Shown one piece after another: positions 6,986 to 52,724 of a DNA stretch of 64,000 bases; positions within the stretch are counted from its first letter, which is position 1, and every line of letters starts with the position of its first letter. The notes beneath the pieces were generated by a model. The model was not told where the DNA came from. It searched no databases and saw only the letters and a program-made list of their open reading frames with translations. This stretch comes from Spirosoma fluviale. GTDB taxonomy: Bacteria > Bacteroidota > Bacteroidia > Cytophagales > Spirosomataceae. The position numbers were made by a program, and so were the translations under genes. The stretch spans positions 62,001-126,000 of the forward strand of contig NZ_OCNH01000001.1 in NCBI RefSeq assembly GCF_900230225.1, written 5' to 3'.

Positions 6986-7056
6986 AAGTTGTAAAGTGGT
7001 AAGTGGTTGACGCACGAGTATTACTCGCACCCCAGCCACTTACCACTTTACAACTT
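6986..7056. terminator. Long bidirectional hairpin terminator
   Basis: Perfect 21-bp arms at 6986-7006 and 7036-7056, with a second small stem (GAGTA/TACTC) in the loop. It lies exactly between the stop codon of the NFACT gene and the stop codon of the convergent glycosyltransferase gene. The 5' arm contains no C at all. Confidence 0.8.
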
Positions 7057-7058
7057 CT

Positions 7059-8270
7059 TTATTGATCCACTACCACACTTAGCTGGGCCATCATAAGTCG
7101 ATTCATTTCGTTCCAGGTGTGATCCCATGAGTTCTCTTTCAGAAACGAGTCGACCGTTTGCCAGTTAGATGATTTTTTAGCCAGCATACGCTCGATTGAC
7201 TTTTCAAAAGCTTCGGCATTGTCGGCAATTTCAACCAGCTCTTTACTGCCATAAGTTCGTATGACATCCCGGATAGGCGTCGAGACAACCGGCAAACCCG
7301 CAGCTAAATACTCAGGCGTTTTTGTTGGGCTGATGAACCGTGTTGACTCATTTAGGGCAAAGGGCAGCATGGCTACATTCCAGTTGCTGAAATACATTGG
7401 TAGATCTTTATAGGACTTCATGCCCAGATAATGAACATTTGGCTGATGAGGAAGAAGCGCCGGGTCTATTTTAACGATAGGACCAAGGAGCACAAACTGC
7501 CAATCCGGACGACGTTCGGCCAATTCCCCCATCAACTTATAGTCAAATCGTTCGTCGATAACGCCACTGAAGCCAATTCGGGGAGTTGCTAACTGACGTT
7601 GATCGACAGGATCGGGTTGTGGTTTACGGGCTGATGAAAAATGGGTAAAGTCAATACTACTTGGAAACGCAAACACATGTGGGTGTCGGTTTTGTTTGGC
7701 TTCGTACAAACTGTAGCCACCGGTGAAGACAACGTCTGCCTGCTGCATCAGTTGTTTTTCCTTCTGCAACAGCTGCGGAGGAGCACCCCAGAATGCAGAT
7801 AACTCATCCATGCAGTCGTAAACCGTCAGGCTAGGCTGTAGATGGTCGCTAAATAGCATCGCCATGGGTGTATAATACCAGGCAACAAACGAACGAATGG
7901 TTTCGCGGGCAATGAATTCGTCAAGCAATTGGCGTTGTAGACGAATGGCTTCTTCAGGACTTGTGCCATGCGGCAAATGCGGTACCAAAACCGTTATTCG
8001 ATCTGTTTGCTTACTTACACTCATGTGCAGCGTATCACTCCACATGGGTTCTTCCAGAAACCAGACCCGGTAGTTTTTTGCCGCCCGACTTAGTAAGTGC
8101 TGAGGCCGTTGGTAAACGAAGTTCCAGCGTAAGTGCGAGAAGCAAATAAGATCAGGGATAACCTGACCGGCAGAACCTAAGGTAGAATTAGTAACAGTTG
8201 TAGATTTAGTTGACTGGACAGATAGGGTGGCGCTATTTGCCAAATCGTTCGTTGAGGATGATACTGTCAT
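7059..8270 (-). CDS. Glycosyltransferase, GT-B fold (family 1/4 type)
   Basis: A 403-aa cytosolic glycosyltransferase. The N-terminal Rossmann domain begins near residue 40 with DLICFSHLRWNFVYQRPQHLL, a motif of a GT4-like subgroup often found next to surface polysaccharide genes. The second domain holds the nucleotide-sugar site: IGFSGVIDERFDYKLM, then FISPTKTPEYLAAGLPVVSTP near residues 316-336, where the Glu of TPEYLA corresponds to the conserved E of the EX7E-type motif. The first 35 residues are Ser/Thr-rich and probably disordered. It stands alone between two terminators or gene ends, so no pathway can be assigned. The donor and acceptor are unknown. Confidence 0.85.
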   Translation of the reverse strand: MTVSSSTNDLANSATLSVQSTKSTTVTNSTLGSAGQVIPDLICFSHLRWNFVYQRPQHLLSRAAKNYRVWFLEEPMWSDTLHMSVSKQTDRITVLVPHLPHGTSPEEAIRLQRQLLDEFIARETIRSFVAWYYTPMAMLFSDHLQPSLTVYDCMDELSAFWGAPPQLLQKEKQLMQQADVVFTGGYSLYEAKQNRHPHVFAFPSSIDFTHFSSARKPQPDPVDQRQLATPRIGFSGVIDERFDYKLMGELAERRPDWQFVLLGPIVKIDPALLPHQPNVHYLGMKSYKDLPMYFSNWNVAMLPFALNESTRFISPTKTPEYLAAGLPVVSTPIRDVIRTYGSKELVEIADNAEAFEKSIERMLAKKSSNWQTVDSFLKENSWDHTWNEMNRLMMAQLSVVVDQ

Positions 8271-8509
8271 GTTTGCTCGTGTAGGGTATTGAGTTAAATA
8301 GTCTGTTCATCAATTGACCAGCCCATAGATGCCTAATTAACAAACCAAACCAGCCATGAAATGTTAATCCTCATTTCATTTAATTGAGGAAGCGGTTCCA
8401 GCTTGTATCAACGCTTTTTATTCATCTCAAAATGCGGCTGAAACTTGGGTAGATTGTCATCGACTTTCTGTCTTTATCATCATTCTGTCCGAACAGGTAG
8501 CCGTTCAAA

Positions 8510-10531
8510 TCAGTTGATCAAAACTACCCGGTTTTGTCGTCCATCCGGTGTTTCAAGGATTATTGTATACCGCCCAGTTGGTAAGCCGCGAAGGGATATT
8601 GTCTTTGTATGCTTGCCAGCCAGGAGCATTGGTTCGGTTAGTATCTGAACCCGTTGTCCCAGTAAGTTTAGGAGCGAAATGGTAGCGGCTCCGCGAGATG
8701 GCAAAGTAAAATCAACCAGCAGTGTTTCTGATGTTGGGTTTGGATATATCCGGAAGCTGCCTGGTTGGGGCTCATCAGTGGCCGTTACAACAGACGTAGA
8801 GGGAGTAGCTGAGGAAGAGATCGAAACACTTTCAACGGTTTTCAGAATCCAGTTCGAGGGGTCGATGATTAGTCCGGATACGGCCCCTTTAACGGGCAGG
8901 GTAAACGTTTGGTCGGCCCGATCATTGACGACCATTACGGTTGTATCGCCCGTAGCTGATTTGATCTGGAGCTGTACGGGCATTGTAAAAGAAGCTGGAT
9001 TCGTTGCAACGGCATTACGCTGTTCCAGTCGTACAGTTACGGTTTTATCCGTACTCCCCGGCGATACCGTTGCTTTATACGTCGGATATCCTTCGCCATA
9101 AATCCATTCTTTAAAGAAGTAATCCAGCGAACGACCGGAAACTTGCTCGGCCACGGCTTGAAAGTCTTCGGTTACTGCTGTTTTGTAGGCGAGCGTTGGC
9201 GATTCGGCGTACGTGCGCATGGTGCGGAAAAAGGCACTGTCGCCTAAAACGCCCCGCAACATATGCAAAACGGAAGCTCCTTTGGCGTAACTTCTCGAAC
9301 TGCTGAAAATAGTATTGAAGTTAGAAATGTCCTGTACATAAATGGAGCCCCTGGCGGTCCGGGCACTGCTCATGAAGCTGTTCATATAATTCTGGTAGCC
9401 AGTCTGCCCACTTACCGATTCGGTGTAAATGGCTTCAGTATACGAAGCAAACCCTTCATTAAGCCAGATATTTTGCCAGTCGCGGCAGGTAATTTTATCG
9501 CCGAACCACTGATGACCCAGTTCATGGGCAATGACGTTGGGTGTTAATGATGATATACCCATGGACGAGATGGTCTGGTGTTCCATGCCGCCGTTGTTTC
9601 GCGCAAACTGAGCATGACCGTATTTTTCGCGCAAAAAGGGATAAGCCCCAAACCGGTTTGAGAACAACCGAATCATGTCCGGTGTTCTGTCGAGGTTTGC
9701 CTGCACTTGAGCCAGGTTTTCTGGATAAATGTAATGCACGACGGGCATGGTCTGGCTACCATACGTGAAAGGCGTATTGTATTCGCTGTAATTGGAGACG
9801 GCTATCGAAATCAGGTATTGGGCAATAGGGTAACTGTTACGCCAGAAATACGTACGGGTGCTGTCGGTATTTGTCGTTGTGCTGACGAGCGTACCATTCG
9901 AAACGGATACGAGTCGGCCCGGGGCGGTAATCCGTACCGACGAGGAGTCGGCTTTATCGGCGGGGGTATCCCGGCAGGGGAACCAGTCCGAAGCACCGTA
10001 AGGCTCGCTCAAACTCCAGATCACCGGATCGTCCGTACTTTCATGCTTGTCAAATTTGAAACTGCCTTTAGCTGCACCGTTTGGAATGCCCTGATAAAAC
10101 ACGGTAAAGGTGAATGCCTGTCCGGTTGCGAGTGGCTGCGAAGGAGTGATGGTCAGTCTATTTTGAGCATGCTGAAAAACTAACTTCTGATTACCCGCTT
10201 TTACGGAATCGACCCGAAGGCCCTCACCGGTTGTTGCCGTAGTTGAGTTCAGGTCGAGGTAAAAACTGCTAAGGGTGGCCACCGTACTTTTAAGCGTTAC
10301 CGTCGTAGCGGCCCGCAGGGTGTTTGGTGATGTGGTAAGCCGTAAGTCGAGGCCATAATATGTTACATCAATAGACGCATCGCCCGGATACGCCAGTCTT
10401 GCCTTTGGGTTGGCCGCCAACTGACCAAAATAACGAACCTTTCCCATCTGGCAGAAAAGACTTCCGTCGGCATTACCCTGAGCACGGGCAAAACAGGGGA
10501 GGAAAAGTAGAAGCAGGTAGCCAATTCGCAT
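8510..10531 (-). CDS. Secreted M1-family metallopeptidase with T9SS sorting domain
   Basis: A 673-aa zinc aminopeptidase of the M1 (gluzincin) family, exported by Sec and then by the type IX secretion system. Residues 1-17 are a signal peptide (MRIGYLLLLFLPCFARAQ). The zinc site HELGH lies at about residues 332-336, and the third ligand is the Glu of LNEGF 18 residues later. The M1 substrate-binding motif appears as NNGGMEHQ (GxMEN variant) at about residue 314. The C-terminal 80 residues (SFRIYPNPTSETLLVDF to VVLIN) form a type A T9SS sorting domain. Its partner genes for secretion are outside the window. It probably degrades peptides outside the cell or on its surface. Confidence 0.93.
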   Translation of the reverse strand: MRIGYLLLLFLPCFARAQGNADGSLFCQMGKVRYFGQLAANPKARLAYPGDASIDVTYYGLDLRLTTSPNTLRAATTVTLKSTVATLSSFYLDLNSTTATTGEGLRVDSVKAGNQKLVFQHAQNRLTITPSQPLATGQAFTFTVFYQGIPNGAAKGSFKFDKHESTDDPVIWSLSEPYGASDWFPCRDTPADKADSSSVRITAPGRLVSVSNGTLVSTTTNTDSTRTYFWRNSYPIAQYLISIAVSNYSEYNTPFTYGSQTMPVVHYIYPENLAQVQANLDRTPDMIRLFSNRFGAYPFLREKYGHAQFARNNGGMEHQTISSMGISSLTPNVIAHELGHQWFGDKITCRDWQNIWLNEGFASYTEAIYTESVSGQTGYQNYMNSFMSSARTARGSIYVQDISNFNTIFSSSRSYAKGASVLHMLRGVLGDSAFFRTMRTYAESPTLAYKTAVTEDFQAVAEQVSGRSLDYFFKEWIYGEGYPTYKATVSPGSTDKTVTVRLEQRNAVATNPASFTMPVQLQIKSATGDTTVMVVNDRADQTFTLPVKGAVSGLIIDPSNWILKTVESVSISSSATPSTSVVTATDEPQPGSFRIYPNPTSETLLVDFTLPSRGAATISLLNLLGQRVQILTEPMLLAGKHTKTISLRGLPTGRYTIILETPDGRQNRVVLIN

Positions 10532-10566
10532 AACGGATGAGTAATTTCTTAGTTAACCAAAAAGAT

Positions 10567-10605
10567 AATCAGTCCGTTAGAAAACGATTAGTTTTCGGAC
10601 TGATT
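10567..10605. terminator. Hairpin overlapping the DUF4230 stop codon
   Basis: A 10-bp stem (10567-10576 with 10596-10605) extended by an inner GAAAAC/GTTTTC pairing. The TAA stop of the DUF4230 gene (10588-10590) lies in the loop, so the 3' arm for that transcript lies just past the stop. It probably ends the DUF4230 transcript before the peptidase gene. Confidence 0.6.
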
Positions 10606-11268: not shown

Positions 11269-11280
11269 GTGTATAAAATG

Positions 11281-11367
11281 ATAGGAACGCTGATCGAACG
11301 GATTGGGCGGATAAAACTGATAAAAATCTGTTTAAATCCGTATAATCCGTTCGATCAGCGTTCCTAT
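11281..11367. terminator. Long hairpin between rny and the DUF4230 gene
   Basis: Perfect 24-bp arms at 11281-11304 and 11344-11367, with a second GGAT/ATCC pairing nested in the loop. It lies 9 bp after the rny stop and 12 bp before the next gene on the same strand, so it probably ends rny transcription or processes the RNA. Confidence 0.75.
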
Positions 11368-11375
11368 TCAAAAAC

Positions 11376-12986: not shown

Positions 12987-13089
12987 TGGACTATATCGTT
13001 AGGATTGAACAAATAAACCATCAACCTGCTGCGATACGAGTGCCCTGAACGCTTACTCTGGGTATTGTGGGATGGAATCCCGCCGTTGT

Positions 13090-13377: not shown

Positions 13378-13424
13378 CGCTGCAGTCGGCTCAGATAGGT
13401 CGTTACCCCGGAGCCAATTTGGGT

Positions 13425-13763: not shown

Positions 13764-13781
13764 AGTTTTTAATGAGTGATT

Positions 13782-13843
13782 GAGTGAATGTCTGAATGAC
13801 TAAATAGTTGGACTGCTCTATTCACTCATTCAGGCATTCACTC
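13782..13843. terminator. Long imperfect hairpin after pheT
   Basis: Arms 13782-13807 and 13818-13843 pair over 26 bp with three mismatches and a 10-nt loop. The 3' edge touches the pheT stop codon. It divides pheT from the coiled-coil/zapA genes on the same strand. Confidence 0.7.
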
Positions 13844-13844
13844 A

Positions 13845-16289
13845 TTATTTTCTAATTACCGCCCCCAACTCCTGCTCAAAGGCAGTCATGAGCCGTTGCA
13901 TAGTCTTATCGATTGTTACATCCGTAAGGGTCTGGGCTGTATCCTGTAGCATGAAGCTGACGGAATATGCCTTTTTATCGGCTCCCAGATTTTCTCCTTC
14001 ATACACATCAAACACATTCAGCGACCGTAATAATTTTCGTTCGGTCTGACGGGCCAGCTTGCTGATCTGCTCGAACGAAACAGCTTTGTCAAGCACCAGC
14101 GATAAGTCACGTCGAACCTCCGGGAACCTGGACACCTCCTCGTAGCGTACTTTGGGGCTCGCTAGTTTGAGTAAGGCCTGCCAGTCGAAGTCGGCGTAAA
14201 ATACGGGCTGCTTCAGGTCAACTAACTTCGTCAGTTTCGGGTTTACCAGCCCTAAACTTACCAGTGGTTTTTTATTGACAACATACGTCAGGCCATACTG
14301 GAAAAGGGTAGGGTCGGCTGGCTGGGTGTCGTAAGCTTTGACCCGGAACAGATTCAGCACCCGCTGAACAGCCGTTGCCAGATCATGAAATGCTACCGGC
14401 TGACTTTTCTGAAGCCAGCTTTCGGGCTGTTGGTTGCCAATAATAGCCAGGCTCATCCGCATCCGCTCCACGTACTTGGTGGTCGAATCCTCAAGTTTTA
14501 CTTTATGATAAACCTTGCCGAATTCGAATGTTTTCAGGTCTTTTTGTCTCCGGTTCAGATTGTACAGCAACGTTTCGAGTGCCGAGAACAGCAGTGTTTG
14601 CCGCATAACGGACAACTCCTCACTGAGTGGGTTAAGCAACGTGACGTCCTCACCCGGTAACGACGACCGAATGGCATCATTGTACGCTGGGCGGGTTAGT
14701 GACAGGGTCAGGATTTCGTAGAAACCATTGGCAGCCATTAACTGTCCAACCCGACTTTGCCACTGGTCAGGGTCTGTTTTCGGGAATTCAGACAGGGAGT
14801 CAGCGGCAAGATTTACCGAAAGGGGGACGTTGTCCAGGCCGTAGATTCGGAGGATTTCCTCAATGACATCGGCCTCCCGCGTTACGTCGACGCGGTAGGG
14901 GGGGACAATGGCGAGGAAGCCCTCGGCTGTCTTTTCTTCAGCCTGAATATCCAGCGCTTCGAGAATCCGATGAATTTCGGGATGGTCGATTTTGATTCCA
15001 ATGAGCCGGTCTATGTTTCGGTAGCGAACCGGTACCTGGAATGGCTCGATGGGGGCGGGATAAAGATCCGTAACCTCCGAGCTGACCACTCCACCGGCCA
15101 CTTGCTGAATGAGCAGGGCAGCTCGTTTCAGGGCGAAGACCGTAATGTTCGGGTCGATGCCACGCTCGAACCGGAACGACGCATCCGTTTTTAACCCATG
15201 ATGCTGAGCCGTTTTACGGACAGACGTTGGCGAGAAATAAGCGGATTCCAAAAAGATGCTGGTCGTTTGAGCCGATACTCCCGAGTACTGACCACCAAAA
15301 ACACCGGCAATACACATCGGCTTTTCAGCATCGCAGATCATCAGGTCGGTAGCGGTTAATTTCCGTTCCACGCCATCCAGAGTTACAAAGGGCGTACCCT
15401 CCGGTAACGTTTTGACGATAACCTGTCGGCCGGCAATTTTATCGGCATCAAAGGCATGAAGTGGCTGACCGAGGTCGTGACAAACGTAGTTAGTTACGTC
15501 GACGATGTTATTGATGGGGTTCAGCCCAATACTCAGCAACCGTTGTTTCAGCCAGTCGGGCGATTCGCCAACCGTTAGGCCACTTAACGTAACTCCGGTA
15601 TAACGCGGGCAGGCTGTCGTATCCTCCACACGAACATCGAGCGTCAGGTCTGTATTGGCCACGGCAAAGGCATCTACGACGGGCAGACGAAGGGGTCGTT
15701 TTAGCACGGCTTTCAAATCGCGGGCTGTTCCGTAGTGCGAAGCGGCATCGATGCGGTTGGGTGTGAGGCCAATTGCAATCTGATAATCGGATTCGAGGTT
15801 GAAATAACGGGCTGCGGGCGTCCCGTTTGGAAGCTGGGAGACCGGACCGTTCGGATCCAGCACAATGATGCCCGCGTGCGATGTTCCCAACCCAATTTCG
15901 TCTTCAGCGCAAATCATTCCTTCGGACGCTGCGCCCCGAATTTTGGCTTTCTTAATCTGAAAGGGTTCGCCGGAACTCGGGTGAAGCGTAGCTCCTACAA
16001 GTGCCACGACCACTTTCTGACCAGCCGCTACGTTGGGCGCACCACAAACGATGGGTAATGGCTGTTCGGCACCTACGTCAACCGTAGTGAGGCTCAGCTT
16101 ATCGGCATCGGGATGTTTCGCACAGGTTAGCACCTCCCCAATAACTACGCCAGCCAGTCCACCGGGTACGGCATCTATTTTTTCTATTCCTTCAACTTCA
16201 AGTCCCGTAGCGGTTAATAATTTACCAACTTCTTCGGGTGACTCAGGTAATTCAATAAACTCTTGTAACCATTTATAGGAAACTTCCAT
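13845..16289 (-). CDS. pheT: Phenylalanine--tRNA ligase beta subunit
   Basis: An 814-aa beta subunit of the PheST heterotetramer, which charges tRNA-Phe. The start MEVSYKWLQEFIELPESPEEV is canonical. Residues 40-150 are the EMAP/OB tRNA-binding domain (VVIGEVLTCAKHPDADKLSLT). The B3/B4 editing domain follows at about 200-390 (YTGVTLSGLTVGESPDWL, FLESAYFSPTSVRKTAQHHGL). B5 is at about 400-480 and the catalytic-like core at about 500-690. The C-terminal ferredoxin-like anticodon domain (FPEVRRDLSLVLDKAVSF to FEQELGAVIRK) is complete. pheS is not adjacent within the window. Confidence 0.97.
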   Translation of the reverse strand: MEVSYKWLQEFIELPESPEEVGKLLTATGLEVEGIEKIDAVPGGLAGVVIGEVLTCAKHPDADKLSLTTVDVGAEQPLPIVCGAPNVAAGQKVVVALVGATLHPSSGEPFQIKKAKIRGAASEGMICAEDEIGLGTSHAGIIVLDPNGPVSQLPNGTPAARYFNLESDYQIAIGLTPNRIDAASHYGTARDLKAVLKRPLRLPVVDAFAVANTDLTLDVRVEDTTACPRYTGVTLSGLTVGESPDWLKQRLLSIGLNPINNIVDVTNYVCHDLGQPLHAFDADKIAGRQVIVKTLPEGTPFVTLDGVERKLTATDLMICDAEKPMCIAGVFGGQYSGVSAQTTSIFLESAYFSPTSVRKTAQHHGLKTDASFRFERGIDPNITVFALKRAALLIQQVAGGVVSSEVTDLYPAPIEPFQVPVRYRNIDRLIGIKIDHPEIHRILEALDIQAEEKTAEGFLAIVPPYRVDVTREADVIEEILRIYGLDNVPLSVNLAADSLSEFPKTDPDQWQSRVGQLMAANGFYEILTLSLTRPAYNDAIRSSLPGEDVTLLNPLSEELSVMRQTLLFSALETLLYNLNRRQKDLKTFEFGKVYHKVKLEDSTTKYVERMRMSLAIIGNQQPESWLQKSQPVAFHDLATAVQRVLNLFRVKAYDTQPADPTLFQYGLTYVVNKKPLVSLGLVNPKLTKLVDLKQPVFYADFDWQALLKLASPKVRYEEVSRFPEVRRDLSLVLDKAVSFEQISKLARQTERKLLRSLNVFDVYEGENLGADKKAYSVSFMLQDTAQTLTDVTIDKTMQRLMTAFEQELGAVIRK

Positions 16290-24375: not shown

Positions 24376-24487
24376 AGAGAGATGTATGATGTATGATGTA
24401 TGATATAGGATGTAAGATGTATGGAAAAGCAGTACGCTACATCTTATATCATACATCATACATCCTTCCAGTATCATTCATCTCTCT
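24376..24487. terminator. Long hairpin reaching into the miaA coding end
   Basis: The main stem pairs 24388-24414 with 24438-24464 (26 of 27 bp), and an outer 9-bp stem pairs 24376-24384 with 24479-24487. The 5' arm is C-free and made of GATGTAT units. It separates the rhodanese gene from the convergent miaA, whose last codons and TGA (24449-24451) lie inside the right arm. Confidence 0.8.
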
Positions 24488-26791: not shown

Positions 26792-26860
26792 TTATTTGGT
26801 TATTGGTGAGTAGTTATTATGTTATGACTAACAAATAACTACTCACCAATAACTAAATAA
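26792..26860. terminator. Long bidirectional hairpin terminator
   Basis: Arms 26792-26818 and 26834-26860 pair at 26 of 27 positions with a 15-nt loop. The 5' arm has no C. It lies between two convergent stop codons (26784 and 26875). Confidence 0.8.
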
Positions 26861-26874: not shown

Positions 26875-27666
26875 TCAGAATACTCTGAAACCGAGTGATA
26901 CTGTTGCTATACCCAGAAAACCCGTGATATTCGAATCTTTGTACACACCACCCACAGGAGCGGCATAGCGAACATCAATATCCAGGAACGGAAGGGGGGT
27001 ATAACCAACGCCCAATTCCAGCGCGTAAGTGAAATCTTTTACTTCCAGATTCAGGGCTTCGTATTTGTTAAGCAGGTTCGTGCTCGCGCTTGTTGCCGGA
27101 ATGTCCGTTTGGGGGAAACTCACCGACGAGTTGGCATTGATAACACCCGCCGTCGTTCGGTCGAGCTGAGCCTTTTGTACAAAGAGAAAGTTTGGTCCGG
27201 CATAGCCGCGCAACTTTCCGCCCATCCAGCGCTTCCCGAATAAAACAGGTACGTTTACTGATTCCAGAATCGATTCTGACGTTGCATTAAGGGTAGCGTT
27301 CAACAAGCCCGGCCGAACGCTTATAGGCAGCGCATTCGCCAGCAGCGCATTGGCGTTTACATCGAGCGTAACGTTTGTTTTCTGCTTCAGTACAAACCGA
27401 TTATAGGTAATCTCTGCCTGAATGAAAAAGCTGTTGAAGTTCTTTCTTGCCCATATCCCGCCTGAATAGCCATAACCAATCCCGTTATTCTTGTTTTCCA
27501 GGTTAGGTACCTGAACGCTGCCAATCGTTTGAGCAGGTACTTTAGTGAAGCCATGTGTAAACGTACCTCCTCCCTTAATACCAAACTCAAATGGTTTGAT
27601 TTGGGCAAAAGAGGTCGATACACTTGCCAGTAGCAGAGCGGCTATTGAAAGCTGTTTTAGTCGCAT
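26875..27666 (-). CDS. Outer-membrane beta-barrel protein (PorT-like fold)
   Basis: A 263-aa small outer-membrane barrel. The start MRLKQLSIAALLLASVSTSFAQ at 27666 gives a clean signal peptide; the longer in-frame version overlaps the upstream SGNH gene and is rejected. After IKPFEFGIKGGGTFTHGF the sequence alternates in amphipathic strands (GFGYSGGIWARKNFNSFFIQAEITYNRF-like) and ends with GFLGIATVSLGFRVF, an aromatic C-terminal strand. Such proteins belong to the outer-membrane beta-barrel families of Bacteroidota (PorT/OMP_b-brl). The gene starts 11 bp after the SGNH hydrolase gene and is probably co-transcribed with it. Confidence 0.82.
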   Translation of the reverse strand: MRLKQLSIAALLLASVSTSFAQIKPFEFGIKGGGTFTHGFTKVPAQTIGSVQVPNLENKNNGIGYGYSGGIWARKNFNSFFIQAEITYNRFVLKQKTNVTLDVNANALLANALPISVRPGLLNATLNATSESILESVNVPVLFGKRWMGGKLRGYAGPNFLFVQKAQLDRTTAGVINANSSVSFPQTDIPATSASTNLLNKYEALNLEVKDFTYALELGVGYTPLPFLDIDVRYAAPVGGVYKDSNITGFLGIATVSLGFRVF

Positions 27667-27676
27667 GAATACGTAA

Positions 27677-29023
27677 TTATTGTTGCAGTAATACACGGCG
27701 ATAGTTGGCAGGGTTGACCGCCGGAATTGTCGAGCCATATTTTGCATTGATTCCTTTAATAATCTCATTAGCCATTAGAGCATATCCAGCGGGTGTAAGG
27801 TGAATACCGTCCAGGCTGAATACCCCTCCCTGAATGAAAGCGGACGTATAGGTAATGCCATTCTGAGTAACGCCGTTGCCTGACCCTACCTGGTTCAGGA
27901 TTGTGTTAGGATCAACGTAGGCAGTTCCTTTAGCATCTGCCTGCGCCTTCATAATGCCGTTATACGTGGCAATAGCTGCGTTTAGGGCGGTCACCTCACT
28001 TGCATCCAGAACCATCCGGTTCGGCAGTGGATTGGTGATGCTAAGGCCATAAGGCCCCACTTTGGTTCCTACGGATTGACTGCCAATGTTTGCGTAGTCG
28101 AGGGCGTTTGGCAGCATGAGCAAATCACCCGTTTGTGTGGCACGAATACCATTGGCAGTCTGGATAATTAGAGCAGTAATGGGCGTTGTTGGCCTCAATA
28201 ACAGATTTAATTGCGCCAGCACCAGCGGCAGGGGCAAGGTTGTAAAATAGGGCGCCGTAGTAATTGTTGGAACGCCTATGACTACGCCCTTGCGACCACC
28301 TTCGGTTAGTTTGTTCATGGCTGCGGTAAAGTTCGTTGTGAACAAAGCCGTTGGGGTTAAAGGCGTTTCCCCGCCAGAAGTCGCATAGTTTAGGGCATCG
28401 TTGTTACCTAACCAGCACGAGAAAAACGTGGCCCCATTCAGGTTATCGCTCATGTACTGAAAGTAGGTGGTGAGCGGGTTCGCGACCAACCGTTCGAAAT
28501 ACTGGTTTCCCTGGGCAGAGCCATAATTGGGAATCAGTATGTCCGATACACGAATACCCGGTACCCCTAAATTCTGATTCGCATCGGTGAATTTGGTTAA
28601 TAAGGGAAAGCCAGCGGAGGTAAGGCCACCCCGTGCCGCGCCGGGAGCCACCTGGCCGATGGAGGAGATCAGACTGGACGGGTCGGTTAACGAAGGCACT
28701 TTTATTAATTTCAGGTAGCCCGACCCAGCAGCCTGGGCTTCTGTAAATAGTGGCTGCACAAAACTACCGCCACCAACCAGCGCAAACTGGCCCGCCAGAA
28801 TGTTTGGATAAGAATTAAGCTGACTTTCCCGGTATAGTCCACCATCGGCATATCCGGCTGTGAGGGAGTTGCCTACCGCCACATATTTCGTGAAGTCGGC
28901 ACTTCCTTTTGTCGGCGTAATGGTACTGCCTCCCGTTGGATCAATGTCGTTGTTCGTGCAGGCACTTAAACCAACCAGTACGGTTAGAATCAGCCCCCAC
29001 CGAAACCTGTTTTTAACTAGCAT
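27677..29023 (-). CDS. SGNH/GDSL-fold lipoprotein hydrolase
   Basis: A 448-aa lipoprotein esterase-like protein. The signal peptide ends LVGLSAC with Cys at about residue 22. Block I is YVAVGNSLTAGYADGG at about residues 48-63, where the Ser of GNSLT replaces the GDSL motif. The C-terminal block with the catalytic pair is SLDGIHLTPAGYALMANEII near residue 415 (D and H of DGIH). ATFFSCWLGNNDAL at about 195 supplies the oxyanion Asn. Its substrate is unknown; in this family it may be acyl groups on glycans. It leads a two-gene unit with the barrel protein downstream. Confidence 0.9.
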   Translation of the reverse strand: MLVKNRFRWGLILTVLVGLSACTNNDIDPTGGSTITPTKGSADFTKYVAVGNSLTAGYADGGLYRESQLNSYPNILAGQFALVGGGSFVQPLFTEAQAAGSGYLKLIKVPSLTDPSSLISSIGQVAPGAARGGLTSAGFPLLTKFTDANQNLGVPGIRVSDILIPNYGSAQGNQYFERLVANPLTTYFQYMSDNLNGATFFSCWLGNNDALNYATSGGETPLTPTALFTTNFTAAMNKLTEGGRKGVVIGVPTITTAPYFTTLPLPLVLAQLNLLLRPTTPITALIIQTANGIRATQTGDLLMLPNALDYANIGSQSVGTKVGPYGLSITNPLPNRMVLDASEVTALNAAIATYNGIMKAQADAKGTAYVDPNTILNQVGSGNGVTQNGITYTSAFIQGGVFSLDGIHLTPAGYALMANEIIKGINAKYGSTIPAVNPANYRRVLLQQ

Positions 29024-29723: not shown

Positions 29724-29798
29724 AAGTTAAAAAAGTCGGTAAGTGGCTAACGCGAGCGTATTGCTTTCGCGTCAGCCACTTACCGACTTTTTTAACTT
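29724..29798. terminator. Long hairpin after the LysM gene
   Basis: Arms 29724-29754 and 29768-29798 pair at 30 of 31 positions, the longest stem in the window, with a 13-nt loop. It ends the LysM gene transcript before the DUF937 gene on the same strand. The right arm has the word CCACTTACCGACTT, and a related CACTTACCAACTTA follows at 29814-29827. Confidence 0.8.
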
Positions 29799-30795: not shown

Positions 30796-30867
30796 CCCAG
30801 GGAACACAAACACGGCCTGGAGACTGTTGATTTTAGTACCTATAATTTACTCTAACGTTTGAAAACC

Positions 30868-31155
30868 ATGATTCATACTCGCATACGACCGCTTCGGTCC
30901 TGGTTATTGGCTGCCTGTCTCATCGGGTCCAGCCTGACTGTCTGGAATTGTTCCGGCAAGAAGAATGAGAATGCTACGGAGAACAGTGCCGAATCTACAA
31001 TGAGCGATACCACCGCCACCAGCGACAGTTCGGTGTTTGGTCGGCAGGGGGATACGACTAACAATGCCTTGAATGCTCCCCAGCAGGCTCCGCCCGATAG
31101 TGGTGATCGAGGTGCCGTTGTACCGGCGGAGGTAAAAGTTACACCCAAGAAATAA
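30868..31155 (+). CDS. Small Ser/Thr/Asn-rich lipoprotein
   Basis: A 95-aa secreted protein. The start ATG at 30868 is preferred to a TTG 9 bp upstream. A basic N-terminus (HTRIRPLR) leads into a hydrophobic core (SWLLAACLIGSSLTVWNC) with a possible lipidation Cys at about residue 29, though the -3 to -1 residues are not ideal. The mature part is low complexity and rich in Asn, Ser, Thr, Asp and Pro, as in many small Bacteroidota lipoproteins. No domain was recognised. Confidence 0.65.
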   Translation: MIHTRIRPLRSWLLAACLIGSSLTVWNCSGKKNENATENSAESTMSDTTATSDSSVFGRQGDTTNNALNAPQQAPPDSGDRGAVVPAEVKVTPKK

Positions 31156-31161
31156 GGAGTA

Positions 31162-31217
31162 AGAAGCTGTTTGAGTTAATCGATTTAGGAGCAAATCGAT
31201 TAACTCAAACAGCTTCT
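31162..31217. terminator. Perfect 25-bp hairpin
   Basis: Arms 31162-31186 and 31193-31217 pair perfectly with a 6-nt loop, 7 bp after the stop of the small lipoprotein gene. The next gene is on the same strand, so this should end the DUF937/lipoprotein transcript. Confidence 0.85.
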
Positions 31218-33460: not shown

Positions 33461-33500
33461 ACAAAATGCCCGCAATAATAGGCTATTGCAGGCATTTTGT
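33461..33500. terminator. Bidirectional hairpin terminator
   Basis: Arms 33461-33477 and 33484-33500 pair at 16 of 17 positions with a 6-nt loop, between the convergent M20 and sigma-factor genes. Confidence 0.8.
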
Positions 33501-36002: not shown

Positions 36003-36055
36003 CCGGAGACGAAAGGAGAAATGACCGAAATATGTCTTTCTCCTTTCGTCTCCGG
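36003..36055. terminator. Intrinsic terminator after manA
   Basis: Perfect 19-bp arms at 36003-36021 and 36037-36055, followed by TGTTTTT on the plus strand, an ordinary intrinsic-terminator tail but with a very long stem. Confidence 0.85.
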
Positions 36056-36899: not shown

Positions 36900-36972
36900 C
36901 GATTTGGCTGAAGGGTGCTTCAAACGCCGTATCTCCAGAATATGGCATTTGAAGCACCCTTCAGCCAAATCG
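36900..36972. terminator. Perfect 25-bp hairpin between SDR and mutarotase genes
   Basis: Arms 36900-36924 and 36948-36972 pair perfectly. It lies 30 bp after the SDR stop and 26 bp before the mutarotase start on the same strand. Confidence 0.8.
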
Positions 36973-37325: not shown

Positions 37326-37498
37326 GTGTAAGGGCGGAAGTTTACTTCTGATGCGGATTGCACATGCTGACGCGGGTATTCACCCGTGCCAGCATGCAAC
37401 TGTAGTACCGACCGTCCCGGTCGGGTATAAATGCAGGACGTTTCTTCCTCATCCATTGTGCAATTCGCTCCAACATATAACAAATTTTTTTTGATGTA

Positions 37499-37566
37499 TA
37501 TGTAAAATAAACTTGACATTATGAAAAACGAACTTTACGTTTGGTATGTCAACTTAACTTTACATA
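37499..37566 (+). promoter_or_regulatory. Consensus promoter inside a 20-bp inverted repeat (likely XRE operator)
   Basis: TTG at 37513-37515, a 20-bp spacer and TACGTTTG at 37536-37543 form an exact Bacteroidota promoter, 26 bp before the membrane-protein start. It is bracketed by an imperfect inverted repeat, 37499-37518 and 37547-37566, matching at 17 of 20 positions. The left arm covers the TTG and the right arm covers the probable start site. This layout fits repression by the XRE protein of the same operon. Confidence 0.75.
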
Positions 37567-37569
37567 TCC

Positions 37570-38046
37570 ATGAAAACAAAGTGGCTTTTCCCGCATCGTT
37601 TCCGGCTGATCGGCTGGTTGATTTTTGTTCCGTTTACAGCTCTTGGTGTAGCTAATCTTTATGCTGATTTTAATCTTTTTGCTAGGCTAATCAGTAAAGA
37701 ATTTGGCGCACCTGTCATGAAGTCTACTGATGTAGTAAGTTATTCTTTTGGTTTTATGGATAATTTTACCGACGAAATAGCTGCCATTGGAGTTATTGTC
37801 GGTTTATTATTCATTGCTTTTTCGCGAGAGAAAATAGAAGATGAAATGATTAGCCAGTTACGACTCGAAGCCCTTCAATGGAGCGTGTATGCGAACTATA
37901 TTATTTTAACAATCGCCATCTTAACCGTTTATGAGGGTGCATTTTTAGATGTCATGATGTACAATATGTTCACTGTTTTGCTAGTCTTCATCATCCGGTT
38001 TCGCTGGCTCATCCATCGGAACAATACTAACCTGCTCGCTTTATGA
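37570..38046 (+). CDS. Four-helix membrane protein paired with XRE regulator
   Basis: A 158-aa integral membrane protein with hydrophobic segments at about residues 12-30, 70-85, 108-128 and 130-147. A conserved-looking loop is FGFMDNFTDEIAAIGVIVGLLF. No enzyme motif is present. Genes of this kind, coupled to a short YozG/YgzD-type regulator, occur in many Bacteroidota and Bacillota, where the role is poorly known. The end overlaps the XRE start by 4 bp. Base composition is more AT-rich than in the flanking genes. Confidence 0.82.
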   Translation: MKTKWLFPHRFRLIGWLIFVPFTALGVANLYADFNLFARLISKEFGAPVMKSTDVVSYSFGFMDNFTDEIAAIGVIVGLLFIAFSREKIEDEMISQLRLEALQWSVYANYIILTIAILTVYEGAFLDVMMYNMFTVLLVFIIRFRWLIHRNNTNLLAL

Positions 38047-43857: not shown

Positions 43858-43913
43858 ACCTGTTCAAGAGTCCAGTTTCATCTCATTAAACGGTTCGGTC
43901 TAGCCTGTTCTCC

Positions 43914-43983
43914 TGTAGCCTGGACGGCCACGTCCGGGAGTAAATGAGTTTATGTCTTCCCGGACGTGGCCGTCCAGGCTACA
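43914..43983. terminator. Perfect 26-bp GC-rich hairpin terminator
   Basis: Arms 43914-43939 and 43958-43983 pair perfectly with an 18-nt loop, between the convergent 67-aa gene and the DNA glycosylase gene. The stem is GC-rich, unlike the C-free group. Confidence 0.85.
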
Positions 43984-44000
43984 GCAAACCGCTTTCTCAA

Positions 44001-45082: not shown

Positions 45083-45105
45083 CTAGTCGTTACGGATTAG
45101 TAATG

Positions 45106-45309: not shown

Positions 45310-45347
45310 ACGAATGCTGTTTTGATTACCTATGAAACGAGAAACAT

Positions 45348-46235: not shown

Positions 46236-46330
46236 TCGTTGAATTAGTTAGTAGTTGTTAAGTTGTTGGTTATTCGCTTTTAGGTATGAAGTTGCCGGAA
46301 CGTGAACTCAAGAACCTGCTAACCAATAAC

Positions 46331-48010: not shown

Positions 48011-48046
48011 GCACTTTTTGTAGTTTCGCCAAGAGTTAGCAGATAA

Positions 48047-48130
48047 TGAAAAATGAAGAATGAAAAGTGACGAACAAACGGAATAAACCAAATACGTGTT
48101 TACTCCTCACTTTTCATTCTTCATTTTTCA
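48047..48130. repeat. Perfect 24-bp inverted repeat between divergent genes
   Basis: Arms 48047-48070 and 48107-48130 pair perfectly (loop 36 nt); the 5' arm is C-free. It lies midway between the start of pdxA (48010) and the start of the dehydrogenase (48164), so it is not a normal terminator. It could be part of both leader RNAs or a protein-binding site. Confidence 0.7.
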
Positions 48131-48163
48131 CTGTATTTGCTGCAAGTTACGAAAACACAACGG

Positions 48164-49096: not shown

Positions 49097-49119
49097 AGAC
49101 AACGCATGCGTTGTCTCTA
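49092..49119. terminator. 28-bp perfect palindrome
   Basis: The 14-bp halves 49092-49105 and 49106-49119 form a perfect palindrome with no spacer, containing the TAG stop of the dehydrogenase and ending 1 bp before the convergent IPT/TIG stop. It can serve both genes as a terminator. Confidence 0.7.
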
Positions 49120-49120
49120 C

Positions 49121-50914
49121 CTACCGGGTTATCGTGAAATTTGAACTACTGCAACTCGTTCCGGCTTCGTTGGTCAGACAGATTTGCCCGGTAATGGCTC
49201 CGGCCGGAATGGTGACCCGGAGGTTTGCGCCTTCCAGCACAAAAGCGGCCGGTGTGGACGTTCCGTTGCTGAATCGAATCTCCTGAACGGTGGCCAGGTT
49301 CTGTCCAGTCAGGACGATCTGGTCGCCAACCTTACCCGATTTAGGTGTGAAGTCGATGTTATTAATGAGCCGTAGAACGGTAAACGGGGCCGTTGTGGTC
49401 GCATCGTTCGTTTCGTTCGTTACCCGCAATGGTCCCGTCTGGGCGTCGTTCGGCACCAGCACCCAGCGTTCTTTATCCTCTTTCTTACCCCCATCGGCGG
49501 CAGGCGTCGTGGAGCCCGTGAATAGGATTGAGGCATTCAACAGAAAGTCCCCCCGGAGAACCACCCGCTCGCCGGGGCGGGCTTTTAACGGAAGGATGTC
49601 TGAAACGACCGCTTTCTGAACGATCACCAACGGGGCTGATGTGGTACCTGCGCGGCTGGTTACCGTAATTGGACCGCTAACGGCGATTTCGGGGATGCCA
49701 ATCAGCAGATCGAAGCCCTCATTACGGCTGGTTACAGGTACCGTAATCCCGCTAACGCTGACGCTGGTAATCCGATATAAATTATTGCCCGATACCGTTA
49801 GCGGGCGTCCGCGTAGTTGCCGGGCTGGCGTGAAGGTCAGATTGGAGGGGGGCAGGAAAAAGAAGAACGGGTCTGTGGCCGTTGTGGTGCCGCCGATACC
49901 GGTGGCGGTTACCGATACTCGCCCGGATGTAGGTAAGGCCGGGACGGTAGCTTCCAGTTGCGTTGCGTTAATTATCCGAAACGGCACGGACACATTACCA
50001 ATCGACACGGTCGAAATTTCCTGAAAATTTCGACCTTCTACAATTAGCTTTTCGCCCGCTGCGCCGTCCTGAGCCATCAGGTGTGTAATAAAAGGAGGCT
50101 GGAAGAGTTTCAGTGTGTCGGTACTGGTGGCTATCAATGACTCAAAAACCTGCACCCGCACCAGTCCTGATGTGGCTGATTGAGGAATAATGGTGCGGAT
50201 TTCGGTATCTTTTATGGTCGTCAGGGCTTTATCGGGAGCCAGCCCGTTAATGCTCACCGTTCCATCGGTGAAGTTCTTCCCAAGAATGACTAACTCCGCC
50301 CCTGGTTTGGCTTTAGTTGGACTTATGCTGGTAATCTGGGGCGTTCCGGCGATAACGAATCGATTGATAACCGTACCTGCGGATGTTTCAACGATAAATG
50401 CCTGCGGTCCTCTGGGTACGGTTGGGGGAATCGTAATCGTCAGTTTCCGGGCCGTACTATCATTAATTATGGCGTCAATATCGTTGAATCGAATTCGTCG
50501 AATTTGATTCAGGTAGTCGCCCGTAACAACAACCTGCGTGCCGGGAAGCCCATTTGTTGGGGTAATGGCGGTAACAATGGGGGCTGGCTGAAGCACCGTA
50601 AAGGGGAGTGGATCGGAGCTGCCTTCCTTCGTCTGAACACGAATCTGGGTTTTGCCCGGTGCCACTCTGGGTACCAGCAGTTGAATAGACGTTTCGTCGT
50701 GGCTGCCAATGGGCGCGTTAACAGCAGAGGTCGCTGTCCCAAATGTAACCGTAGGGTCCGTACCGAACTGATAGCCAGACAGTGTGATGGACTGATCTAC
50801 GTAAGCCTGATTGACAGAGATCTTAACCAGCTCTGGCGGGCTATGCTGAACCCGGCAACCAAAAAACCCAAGAAGGATACTAAGCGAAAAGAAAACTCGT
50901 AATGTTGATTTCAT
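49121..50914 (-). CDS. IPT/TIG repeat surface lipoprotein
   Basis: A 597-aa lipoprotein. The start MKSTLRVFFSLSILLGFFGC at 50914 puts a lipidation Cys at about residue 20. The rest is seven Ig-like IPT/TIG repeats of about 80 residues, each opening with a pattern like ITSISPTKAKPGAELVILG or IDFTPKSGKVGDQIVLTG. IPT/TIG chains are found in surface-exposed binding proteins such as the SusE/SusF or xyloglucan-binding type. No enzyme domain is attached. It probably sits on the outer membrane and binds a glycan or protein partner. Confidence 0.9.
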   Translation of the reverse strand: MKSTLRVFFSLSILLGFFGCRVQHSPPELVKISVNQAYVDQSITLSGYQFGTDPTVTFGTATSAVNAPIGSHDETSIQLLVPRVAPGKTQIRVQTKEGSSDPLPFTVLQPAPIVTAITPTNGLPGTQVVVTGDYLNQIRRIRFNDIDAIINDSTARKLTITIPPTVPRGPQAFIVETSAGTVINRFVIAGTPQITSISPTKAKPGAELVILGKNFTDGTVSINGLAPDKALTTIKDTEIRTIIPQSATSGLVRVQVFESLIATSTDTLKLFQPPFITHLMAQDGAAGEKLIVEGRNFQEISTVSIGNVSVPFRIINATQLEATVPALPTSGRVSVTATGIGGTTTATDPFFFFLPPSNLTFTPARQLRGRPLTVSGNNLYRITSVSVSGITVPVTSRNEGFDLLIGIPEIAVSGPITVTSRAGTTSAPLVIVQKAVVSDILPLKARPGERVVLRGDFLLNASILFTGSTTPAADGGKKEDKERWVLVPNDAQTGPLRVTNETNDATTTAPFTVLRLINNIDFTPKSGKVGDQIVLTGQNLATVQEIRFSNGTSTPAAFVLEGANLRVTIPAGAITGQICLTNEAGTSCSSSNFTITR

Positions 50915-51131
50915 AAAACGACAACCGGAGTTGTCATTCCGGTGCATAATCGGTAAAATTAGTCAATTTGACCATCCAAAAACCATTTCTCCAGAAAGCC
51001 TGTTAGACCTAATGAAGTGTGATTCGTGTAGAAGCCATCAATATGCAGAAATAGAGAGGGGAGTTAATTAAGTTAGCCACTAATTCTCAATTTACACGTA
51101 TCGTTCCACATTCTTCACTAAGAATTATCGA

Positions 51132-52664
51132 ATGAACTACCGCAGCCTGAAAGCATCAAAATTACTGACAATCTCAACGCTCGGCGAACTTAAAGCCGCT
51201 GGCTATGAAACCCGCTCAATTAAACAGGAACTTCGGGATAATCTGATTGACCGAATTAAGGAAAAAGAAGTCGTTTTTCCGGGCATATGGGGGTACGAAG
51301 ATACGGTTATCCCCGACGTTGAACGCGCCATCCTGTCGATGCACCATATTAACCTGCTGGGCCTTCGGGGACAGGCCAAAACGCGTATTGCCCGGCTGAT
51401 GGTCAATTTGCTGGACGAGTATATTCCCGTTGTGGCCGGGTCGGAATTAAATGACGACCCACTGCAGCCACTGTCCCGGTTTGCCATCGACCTTATTGCC
51501 GAGAAGGGGGATCAGACGCCTGTTTCCTGGATGCACCGCAGCGAGCGATACACCGAGAAACTGGCCACACCAGACGTTTCCGTAGCCGATTTGATTGGCG
51601 ACGTGGACCCCATCAAAGCAGCTACGCTTAAACTGCCTTACTCAGATGAGCGGACTATTCACTACGGACTGATTCCACGTTCGCACCGGTGTATTTTCGT
51701 GATCAATGAACTGCCCGATTTGCAGGCACGTATTCAGGTATCGCTGTTCAATATTTTGCAAGAGGGCGATATTCAGATTCGAGGCTTTAAGCTGCGTCTG
51801 CCACTCGATATTCAGTTCGTGTTTACCGCAAACCCGGAAGATTATACTAACCGGGGCAGCATTGTAACTCCTCTTAAAGACCGGATCGATTCCCAGATTG
51901 TGACCCACTATCCGAAATCCATCGAAATCGGAAAGAAGATTACGTTGCAGGAAGCCGTTGTAAAAACCGAGCAGAAAGGCATGGTGAAAACCAATGACCT
52001 GGTTGCTGATTTAATCGAACAGGTAGCGCTCGAAGCCCGCGAAAGCGAATACGTCGACTCAAAAAGTGGCGTATCGGCCCGGATGACTATCTCGGCCTAC
52101 GAGAATCTGCTGTCCTCGGCCGAACGGCGGGCGTTGATCAACGGTGAAAAAGAGACGTATGTGCGCGTCTCTGACCTCTACGGGGTTGTTCCCGCCATCT
52201 GCGGTAAAGTCGAGCTGGTATATGAAGGCGAAGTGGAAGGACCGGTGATTGTGGCCCAAAACCTGATCGGTAAAGCGATCCGTAACCAGTTTCTGGCTTA
52301 TTTCCCAAATCCTGAAAAAGCCAAAAAAGATAAGCGCGGTAATCCGTACAAGAAAGTTACGGACTGGTTTGGCGATGGCAACACGATGGAATTTCTCAAT
52401 GATTTATCGAACCGCGATTACGAAGCCCGGCTCCGTACCATTGACGGTCTCGACGATCTGGTTGATGGTTTCCACCCGCGTCTGGGCAAAACTGAAAAGC
52501 TATTTATGATGGAGTTCGCCCTGCATGGTTTGGCTGAACATTCGCTGGTTGGCAAGAAAGCCATGGATACCGGCCTGTCGTTCAAAGACCTGCTTGGGTC
52601 GATGTTCAACCCCGGCACCAGCTTTGGTGGGGAGGAAGAAGATGAGGACGACGACCGGTTCTAG
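51132..52664 (+). CDS. MoxR/Mg-chelatase-like AAA+ ATPase with variant Walker motifs
   Basis: A 510-aa AAA+ protein of the ChlI/MoxR type. Walker A is GLRGQAKTRIARL at about residues 77-89, with Ala in place of the Gly before the catalytic Lys. Walker B reads CIFVINELPDL at about 189-199, with Asn for the usual Asp but the catalytic Glu kept. Sensor-like VFTANPEDYTNRG follows at about 236-248. The C-terminal region carries a helical lid and an acidic tail (GGEEEDEDDDRF). These variants occur as a set in a known but poorly studied subfamily. The VWA partner usual for MoxR proteins is absent here. Confidence 0.88.
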   Translation: MNYRSLKASKLLTISTLGELKAAGYETRSIKQELRDNLIDRIKEKEVVFPGIWGYEDTVIPDVERAILSMHHINLLGLRGQAKTRIARLMVNLLDEYIPVVAGSELNDDPLQPLSRFAIDLIAEKGDQTPVSWMHRSERYTEKLATPDVSVADLIGDVDPIKAATLKLPYSDERTIHYGLIPRSHRCIFVINELPDLQARIQVSLFNILQEGDIQIRGFKLRLPLDIQFVFTANPEDYTNRGSIVTPLKDRIDSQIVTHYPKSIEIGKKITLQEAVVKTEQKGMVKTNDLVADLIEQVALEARESEYVDSKSGVSARMTISAYENLLSSAERRALINGEKETYVRVSDLYGVVPAICGKVELVYEGEVEGPVIVAQNLIGKAIRNQFLAYFPNPEKAKKDKRGNPYKKVTDWFGDGNTMEFLNDLSNRDYEARLRTIDGLDDLVDGFHPRLGKTEKLFMMEFALHGLAEHSLVGKKAMDTGLSFKDLLGSMFNPGTSFGGEEEDEDDDRF

Positions 52665-52676
52665 TCTGTAAACGAA

Positions 52677-52724
52677 CGTAAAGTGATAAAGGCGAGCCAC
52701 ATGGCTCGCCTTTATCACTTTACG
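52677..52724. terminator. Perfect 23-bp hairpin terminator
   Basis: Arms 52677-52699 and 52702-52724 pair perfectly with a 2-nt centre, 12 bp after the AAA+ gene stop. Confidence 0.85.

What the first reader, a model, noticed from the sequence alone, without database searches (positions are those of the whole stretch)
6986..52724. A family of extra-long, nearly perfect hairpins at gene borders, each with a private sequence
Arms are 21 bp (6986/7036), 24 bp (11281/11344), 26 bp with 3 mismatches (13782/13818), 27 bp (24388/24438), 27 bp (26792/26834), 31 bp (29724/29768), 25 bp (31162/31193), 19 bp (36003/36037), 25 bp (36900/36948), 26 bp (43914/43958), 24 bp (48047/48107) and 23 bp (52677/52702). 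Ordinary intrinsic terminators have stems of roughly 7-12 bp. The stems differ from one another, so they are not copies of one mobile element, yet the arms stay almost perfectly matched, which means something keeps both arms in step (gene conversion, palindrome-making replication errors, or strong selection on RNA folding). They could act as RNase III substrates, exonuclease blocks, or barriers between convergent transcripts.
Basis: partly seen in the sequence, partly recalled or inferred. Interest (0 to 1): 0.8.

Follow-up and report, generated by a model that had tools for sequence, protein, structure and literature searches.

The report
Self-perfecting long hairpins at gene ends
In this bacterium many genes end in an unusually long, almost perfectly folded-back stretch of DNA, and comparison with sister species indicates that copying errors during DNA replication re-match the two halves and sometimes flip the middle, so the shape survives while the letters change.

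Summary
All 12 hairpins sit where stated (arms 19-33 bp); the window has 14 at my cut-off against 0.05 per shuffle. In 464 kb of the same genome there are 1.75 per 10 kb. They mark gene 3' ends: 28 of 42 convergent gaps, 42 of 156 co-directional, 2 of 54 divergent. The longest rarely have a U-tract and begin with a G-rich arm.

Sister species often keep a hairpin at the site but with other letters. Arms change in step: of 1783 stem pairs, 92 changed on both sides (23.8 expected), 74 of them to Watson-Crick, 36 of those by transversion. In 9 of 77 tested loci the loop is inverted between sister species (permuted partners 14 of 770; ordinary aligned DNA 2 of 1166).

Best reading: 3'-end RNA hairpins (terminators or exonuclease stops), re-perfected by replication template switching between the arms. 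The process is known (yeast, rRNA, plastids); the scale at bacterial gene ends, the long-loop flips and the U-less G-first form look new. No RNA data were available.

The parts
6986..7056 (.). Hairpin, 21-bp arms, between convergent genes (NFACT-like + and glycosyltransferase -)
   Evidence: orthologous junctions with other hairpin letters
11281..11367 (-). Hairpin, 24-bp arms, downstream of the RNase Y gene
   Evidence: junction compared in 30 species
13781..13844 (-). Hairpin, 27-bp arms with 3 mismatches, downstream of pheT
24388..24464 (.). Hairpin, 27-bp arms with 1 mismatch, GATGTAT stutter, convergent gap, overlaps the 3' end of the right-hand ORF
26792..26860 (.). Hairpin, 27-bp arms with 1 mismatch, convergent genes
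29724..29798 (+). Hairpin, 32-bp arms with 1 mismatch, apex of the GGCTGACGC-like family
31162..31217 (+). Hairpin, 25-bp perfect arms; replaced by unrelated hairpins in G034 and G042
33461..33500 (.).
36003..36055 (+). Hairpin, 19-bp arms, followed by TGTTTTT; covariation over 5 species
36900..36972 (+). Hairpin, 25-bp perfect arms (33 with extension); no counterpart in G034 or G042
43913..43984 (.). Hairpin, 27-bp perfect arms; no counterpart in G034, not anchored in G042
48047..48130 (.). Hairpin, 33-bp arms with 3 mismatches; classed as divergent gap by my gene calls; alignable in G042, weaker in G034
52676..52725 (.). Hairpin, 23-24-bp perfect arms, convergent genes; related hairpins with other outer stems in G034 and G042

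Best explanation
They are RNA hairpins that define transcript 3' ends (terminators and/or stops for 3'-to-5' exonucleases; between convergent genes one hairpin serves both strands). Their two arms are repeatedly copied from one another by DNA-polymerase template switching during replication (quasipalindrome correction). One-arm mutations arise; now and then the nascent strand switches template between the arms, copying the mutations of one arm into the other and, when the switch is between strands, inverting the loop. Selection keeps a stable hairpin near the stop codon but hardly cares about its letters, so position and shape tend to persist while sequence turns over. Shown: location, rarity of U-tracts in the longest ones, in-step changes, loop inversions, and at the RNase Y junction the alternation with a conventional terminator. 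Inferred: the replication mechanism and the RNA function.
For: Location: hairpins in 28 of 42 convergent, 42 of 156 co-directional, 2 of 54 divergent gaps. In-step change in four close species pairs: 1783 stem pairs in 86 alignable hairpins, 92 two-sided (23.8 expected), 74 Watson-Crick, 38 transitions and 36 transversions; on the stricter set 48 two-sided (10.1 expected), 40 WC, against 9-18 two-sided and 2-5 WC with slid partners. Two-sided changes are clustered by hairpin (0 of 2000 shuffles as uneven). Loop inversion: 9 of 77 loci against 14 of 770 with permuted partners and 2 of 1166 in non-hairpin DNA, one with 19 of 19 nt. Two loci combine a loop inversion with matched stem changes (read by eye). 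RNase Y junction: hairpin >=10 in 24 of 30 species, 16 of 276 arm pairs share a 9-mer; five of the six species without one show a short A/T-flanked GGGG..CCCC terminator.
Against: One-sided changes still outnumber two-sided ones (228 against 92), so correction is far from complete. No inversion in 17 tested loci of the pairs G001/G031 and G007/G010. 33 of 77 loops are unclear. Permuted partners give 1.8% inverted calls, more than the 1% design rate, because arms stutter; five of the nine inverted loci only just pass their threshold. Some hairpins have no counterpart in the sister species. No RNA or read-level data.
Confidence: 0.65

Rival explanations
1. Ordinary compensatory evolution: selection on RNA pairing alone, one arm mutating and the other following, with no special mutational process.
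For: Two-sided changes restore Watson-Crick pairs (74 of 92); location at 3' ends; covariation in the 36003 hairpin.
Against: It does not invert loops (9 of 77). Double transversions, which cannot pass through G-U, are as common as double transitions (36 against 38), and one-sided changes are only modestly G-U (71 of 228; about a quarter would be expected if neutral, my estimate from the loop transition share).
Confidence: 0.15
2. Mobile palindromic elements (REP- or MITE-like) that insert at gene ends.
For: Small families exist: exact GGCTGACGC apex 7 copies in G000 and in 24 of 36 congeners; 8 of 54 hairpins share an apical and 6 of 54 a basal 10-mer with another. Y1 transposase matches: 8 in G000.
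Against: 12 of 14 window hairpins have no relative in the 464 kb held. G001 has no Y1_Tnp match yet 24 hairpins in 200 kb. In-step changes occur inside orthologous, not newly inserted, hairpins.
Confidence: 0.08
3. DNA-level elements (cruciforms, protein-binding or supercoil sinks) rather than RNA elements.
For: Long near-perfect palindromes can extrude; convergent gaps collect positive supercoils (general knowledge).
Against: Stems start a median 13 nt from the stop codon, divergent gaps are avoided, and at the RNase Y junction they alternate with conventional terminators. Fits RNA better, does not exclude DNA.
Confidence: 0.06
4. Chance, base composition or assembly artefact.
For: None found; stuttering arms (22 of 47 with p<=0.05) could raise the chance rate locally.
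Against: 0.05 per shuffle against 14; the same class in separately assembled congeners, several of them single-contig.
Confidence: 0.02

Closest known systems
Template switching that creates and maintains RNA hairpins (Monttinen & Loytynoja 2022, PMC8794818; passages read)
   Same: In-step stem changes and loop inversions explained by one replication event; they also show loop inversions in bacterial rRNA.
   Different: Their data are rRNA and microRNA; stem change plus loop inversion was extremely rare there (6 cases in their table) and inverted loops mostly 4 nt. Here loops of 8-19 nt at intergenic gene ends, 9 of 77.
Arm homogenisation and spacer inversion in yeast inverted repeats (Abraham & Hazkani-Covo 2021, PMC8604942; passages read)
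   Same: Same two signatures, ascribed to intra- or intermolecular template switching.
   Different: Coding repeats in yeast strains with short spacers; here long non-coding 3' hairpins in bacteria.
Small inversions in plastid hairpin loops (Jo et al. 2019, PMC6824564; passages read)
   Same: Loops that flip between species inside stem-loops of gene spacers, for which an mRNA-stabilising role is cited.
   Different: 11 sites in plastomes; here many bacterial hairpins, with arm sequence turnover as well.
Intrinsic (Rho-independent) terminators (Kosinski et al. 2025, PMC12207403; passages read)
   Same: Stable hairpin close behind stop codons, shared by convergent genes.
   Different: The canonical form has a U-tract right after the stem; the longest ones here rarely do.
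REP palindromes and RAYT transposases (GTAG/CGTC repeats, PMC3733652; passages read)
   Same: Palindromes preferring convergent and unidirectional gaps, next to gene 3' ends.
   Different: REPs are multi-copy families tagged GTAG or CGTC; these are mostly single-copy and longer.
Survey of perfect inverted repeats in 118,019 genomes (PMC13155455; passages read)
   Same: Inverted repeats enriched near bacterial terminators, spacers more variable than arms within species.
   Different: The passages do not discuss template switching (0 hits for the term) or loop inversion; this genus is not named (0 hits).

Membership tests
Canonical intrinsic terminator | Stable RNA hairpin shortly after the stop codon | tested here: met
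   (median 13 nt)
Canonical intrinsic terminator | U-tract immediately after the stem | tested here: not met
   score >=20: T-run >=4 in the 9 nt after the stem at 4 of 56 gene ends (9 of 56 counting the stem end; 7 of 56 with >=5 T in 8, background 7.6%); score 14-19: 7 of 49 (21 of 49 counting the stem end). So not met for most long ones, met for part of the shorter ones
Canonical intrinsic terminator | Terminates transcription | not testable with these tools
   no RNA data
Template-switch (quasipalindrome-corrected) hairpin | Both arms change together, several sites at once | tested here: met
Template-switch (quasipalindrome-corrected) hairpin | Loop (spacer) inversion | tested here: met
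   9 of 77 loci; none in two of the four species pairs
Template-switch (quasipalindrome-corrected) hairpin | Single-event origin seen in a pedigree or mutation-accumulation line | not testable with these tools
   one genome per species held
REP / MITE mobile palindromes | Many copies of one sequence | tested here: not met
   12 of 14 without a relative in 464 kb; 7 exact copies of the best family apex genome-wide
REP / MITE mobile palindromes | Associated RAYT-type transposase | tested here: inconclusive
   Y1_Tnp 8 matches in G000, 0 in G001, which still has hairpins; nearness to hairpins not examined
Known Rfam RNA family | Match above the gathering score | tested here: not met
   0 matches in the window

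The most novel reading that the evidence does not exclude
In this genus conventional U-tailed terminators have been replaced again and again by long U-less hairpins that repair themselves at the DNA level: transcripts entering from either side meet a G-rich arm first, which may favour RNA-DNA hybrids there, and these (as proposed for yeast quasipalindromes, PMC3820800, abstract start seen in search listings only) prime template switches that re-copy one arm onto the other and flip the loop, about a quarter of a flip per hairpin between sister species at 8-9% divergence. The 3'-end structure would then be maintained largely by a mutational mechanism rather than base by base by selection. The R-loop link is speculation.
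Probability: 0.3. Interest if true: 0.78.

Novelty: new variant of a known kind. Interest (0 to 1): 0.58.

Why it matters
How long perfect RNA stems arise and stay perfect is an open question; template switching is a proposed answer whose strongest signature (stem change together with loop inversion) was reported as extremely rare (PMC8794818, passages). A bacterial genome with an estimated thousand or more such hairpins (1.75 per 10 kb over 464 kb, extrapolated to 7.8 Mb) makes it measurable with plain resequencing. It also warns that covariation at bacterial 3' ends need not mean selection on RNA, and that loop inversions may account for part of the excess spacer polymorphism reported near bacterial terminators (PMC13155455, passages; that link is my inference).

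Tried and rejected
Rfam: 0 matches in the window. Absence of SbcCD as the reason for tolerated palindromes: sbcD is present in G000; among congeners G004 has no match and is hairpin-rich, while G015 (no match) and G003 (sub-cut-off match only) had no hairpin >=14 in 20 kb, so no relation shows. RAYT-driven spread: see rivals. 'One apex family explains all': the exact core has only 7 copies in the genome. A nested model (mobile apex inside an older stem) was tried by comparing apical with basal sharing; 8 against 6 of 54 in G000 does not support it. One search was read with reverse-strand loci not flipped, so its minus-strand rows show the wrong flank; one search repeats that junction correctly. 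A first loop test (120 comparisons, both directions, 60 direct, 20 inverted, 40 neither) counted short and weak cases and each locus about twice; the stricter replace it. The gap classes rest on a simple gene finder of mine that misses some genes (for example 26875-27768 and 30859-31155), so they are approximate. Literature searches. None of the listings showed a paper on long 3' hairpins in Spirosoma or Bacteroidota, but listings are capped (12 of 3,046 papers, 3 of 5 terms required), so this is no proof of absence. van Noort et al. 2003 (quasipalindrome correction) and Kelchner & Wendel 1996 are recalled; Kim & Lee 2005 seen only as cited in PMC6824564.
Full report
What is there. Two scans place all 12 hairpins at the stated coordinates. 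At score >=14 the window has 14; 20 dinucleotide shuffles average 0.05. Each of the 12 folds at -33.3 to -64 kcal/mol with z from -8.3 to -13.3. The genome (G000, 7.8 Mb) is unnamed. Its genes include Por-secretion-tail and beta-barrel proteins, and the nearest named RNase Y relatives listed are Fibrella aquatilis (88% aa) and Arsenicibacter rosenii (80%) (80 loci kept, and records of the window's own genome or one very near it may be left out). I take it to be Spirosoma or a close neighbour in the Cytophagales; that is inference.

How common. In 464 kb of G000 there are 81 hairpins of score >=14 (1.75 per 10 kb), 54 of them >=18. Congeners vary: G004/G040 2.05 and 2.25, G034/G042 1.79 and 1.64, G011 1.88, G038 1.62, G009 1.50, G001/G031 1.20 each, G007/G010 0.75 each per 10 kb; G003 and G015 had none in 20 kb. 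E. coli K-12 has 2 in 100 kb, none >=18. Five grouped samples of other Cytophagales and Sphingobacteriales have 0.19-0.65; Hymenobacter has 2.31, but only 0.46 for >=18. Single loci outside those groups can be richer: Fibrella aquatilis, the nearest named relative, has 3 hairpins of score >=20 in 12.5 kb. The long class is thus mainly a feature of this genus and its nearest relatives in what I sampled.

Where. Of gaps >=40 bp, 28 of 42 convergent, 42 of 156 co-directional and 2 of 54 divergent contain one; 4 of 81 hairpins fell inside genes or outside any gap. One of the two divergent cases is in the window (48047-48130). The median distance from stop codon to stem is 13 nt over 105 hairpin-facing gene ends.

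What they look like. For score >=20, 4 of 56 gene ends have a T-run >=4 in the 9 nt after the stem (background 5.7% of positions), 9 of 56 if the stem end is counted, and 7 of 56 have >=5 T in 8 nt (background 7.6%); for score 14-19 it is 7, 21 and 8 of 49. So the longest ones mostly lack a U-tract and the shorter ones are mixed. The first arm, whichever strand is read, is G-rich: for score >=18, G>C against C>G is 46 and 4 in G000, 22 and 1 in G004, 21 and 2 in G040, 21 and 6 in G034, 20 and 5 in G042, 9 and 3 in G001. Nearly half the arms (22 of 47, p<=0.05 each) show period 5-9 stutter. Most are private within what I held (12 of 14 window hairpins; 8 of 54 share an apical and 6 of 54 a basal 10-mer). 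Small dispersed families exist, notably the apex GGCTGACGC..GCGTCAGCC: 7 exact copies in G000, all with different loops, and present in 24 of 36 congeneric genomes.

Sister species. The window's synteny was followed into five congeners (83.6% nt identity to G034 and G042, 72.8-75.5% to the others). Behind RNase Y the arms are 24 bp in G000, 31 in G042, 27 in G034, 42 in G011 and 37 in G038, with different letters. Across 30 species that junction has a hairpin of score >=10 in 24 and >=18 in 12 (one of these, G016, is an extended A/T-flanked GGG..CCC type); 16 of 276 arm pairs share a 9-mer. Six species score none: five of them (G001, G015, G029, G031, G045) show a short GGG(G)..(C)CCC stem followed by TTTTT, the sixth (G012) does not; G003 and G009 carry the same conventional type with scores 12 and 10. 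At the NFACT junction 9 of 18 species have a hairpin >=10 and 3 of 18 >=18. For hairpins >=18 with an anchored orthologous site, a hairpin >=14 is found in 33 of 44 (G034/G042, both directions), 22 of 32 (G004/G040) and 17 of 21 (G001/G031), against 23 of 2000 random segments; for the window it is 5 of 10 anchored in G034 and 6 of 10 in G042. So sites are often held, not always: 36900 has no counterpart in G034 or G042, and 43913 none in G034.

In-step change. Four close pairs were used: G034/G042 91.7%, G004/G040 90.8%, G001/G031 93.0% nt and G007/G010 (96.6% over a 4.6-kb locus). Of 121 hairpins in the first-named members, 86 had arms alignable at >=60% identity. In their 1783 stem pairs, 228 changed on one side (71 to G-U) and 92 on both, where independence predicts 23.8; 74 of the 92 are Watson-Crick (a third would be expected for random pairs of changes), 38 by transition and 36 by transversion. 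On the stricter set (70 hairpins, >=75% identity, 1432 pairs) it is 145 one-sided, 48 two-sided (10.1 expected), 40 WC; sliding the partner by 1-3 columns gives 9-18 two-sided and 2-5 WC. Dropping loop-inverted loci leaves 43 two-sided (8.0 expected), 36 WC. By pair the two-sided counts are 16, 27, 5 and 0. Two-sided changes concentrate in particular hairpins, for example 7 two-sided and 0 one-sided at G004:87744 (0 of 2000 shuffles as uneven). In the window, the 36003 hairpin shows it with an independent tool: 94.6% of cells paired over five species, 5 of 19 pairs changed on both sides against 0-2 in slid controls.

Loop inversion. Of the 121 hairpins, 21 had no anchor, 16 loops were under 7 nt, 4 sites were empty and 3 too long, leaving 77. 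Against shuffled loops, 35 are direct, 9 inverted, 33 unclear; with partners permuted 14 of 770 are inverted, in non-hairpin aligned DNA 2 of 1166. Four are far above threshold: G004:154539 (19 of 19 nt; its left arm is also shortened in G040), G034:182800, G034:241406 and G004:103792; the other five pass narrowly. In G034:182800 and G034:241406 the inversion comes with matched stem changes, read by eye from the alignments. No inversion was seen in G001/G031 and G007/G010 (17 loci). Inverted over inverted plus direct is 9 of 44, about 0.26 flips per hairpin between sister species if flips are random; the unclear loci make this rough.

Mechanism. Site-specific recombination is unlikely because there is no shared site, and loops of 8-19 nt between arms of about 20 bp are too short for homologous exchange (general knowledge). 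Selection for pairing cannot flip a loop. Replication template switching does both and is documented elsewhere: Monttinen & Loytynoja (PMC8794818, passages) state that a stem change with loop inversion would be the strongest support, found it extremely rare, and show loop inversions in bacterial rRNA; Abraham & Hazkani-Covo (PMC8604942, passages) describe arm homogenisation and spacer inversion in yeast; plastid hairpin loops flip between species (PMC6824564, passages). Function as transcript 3' ends is inferred from location and from the alternation with ordinary terminators. Rho is encoded (799-aa frame), so a long hairpin could also be the stop to which Rho-terminated transcripts are trimmed (recalled from other bacteria).

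Verdict. Observation confirmed; interpretation partly supported and sharpened. Not a new principle, but a rich and testable bacterial case with features (few U-tracts, G-first arms, long flipping loops, turnover across the genus) that I did not find described in the capped searches listed under Tried and rejected.

Noticed in passing
window and L028-L047: First arm of long hairpins is strongly G-rich and C-poor on either strand (46 against 4 in G000); cause unknown (perhaps an arm that cannot fold on itself, or R-loop formation).
   Followed up: partly
window 24381-24464, 13770-13847, 48047-48130 and many arms: Arms are built of degenerate short tandem stutters such as GATGTAT or AATGAAG; 22 of 47 arms exceed shuffles at p<=0.05.
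   Followed up: partly
G000 whole genome and congeners: Dispersed apex family GGCTGACGC..GCGTCAGCC with a different loop in each of the 7 G000 copies; up to 27 copies in one congener (G035); 24 of 36 genomes.
   Followed up: partly
L028:6766-6850, L030:4961-5050, L042:4139-4245, L039:10535-10627: Hairpins with GTCATCCCGAGGAACGAGGGATCTTCGG and CACAGAGATGCACGGAG type arms; similar strings occur in many unrelated bacteria (recalled, not tested).
   Followed up: no
window 37485-37580: A 35-nt imperfect inverted repeat (83%) overlapping the start of the ORF at 37570; looks like a 5' or regulatory element rather than one of the 3' hairpins.
   Followed up: no
window 52733-52756: Right behind the 52676 hairpin lies an ordinary A/T-flanked short hairpin (AAAAAAAGGCCATTCGGCCTTT), so two kinds of terminator-like element sit in one convergent gap (sequence).
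   Followed up: no
congeneric genomes: A match over the sbcD cut-off is present in 26 of 36 genomes; the single-contig genomes G004, G001 and G033 have no match at all. No relation to hairpin density was apparent.
   Followed up: partly
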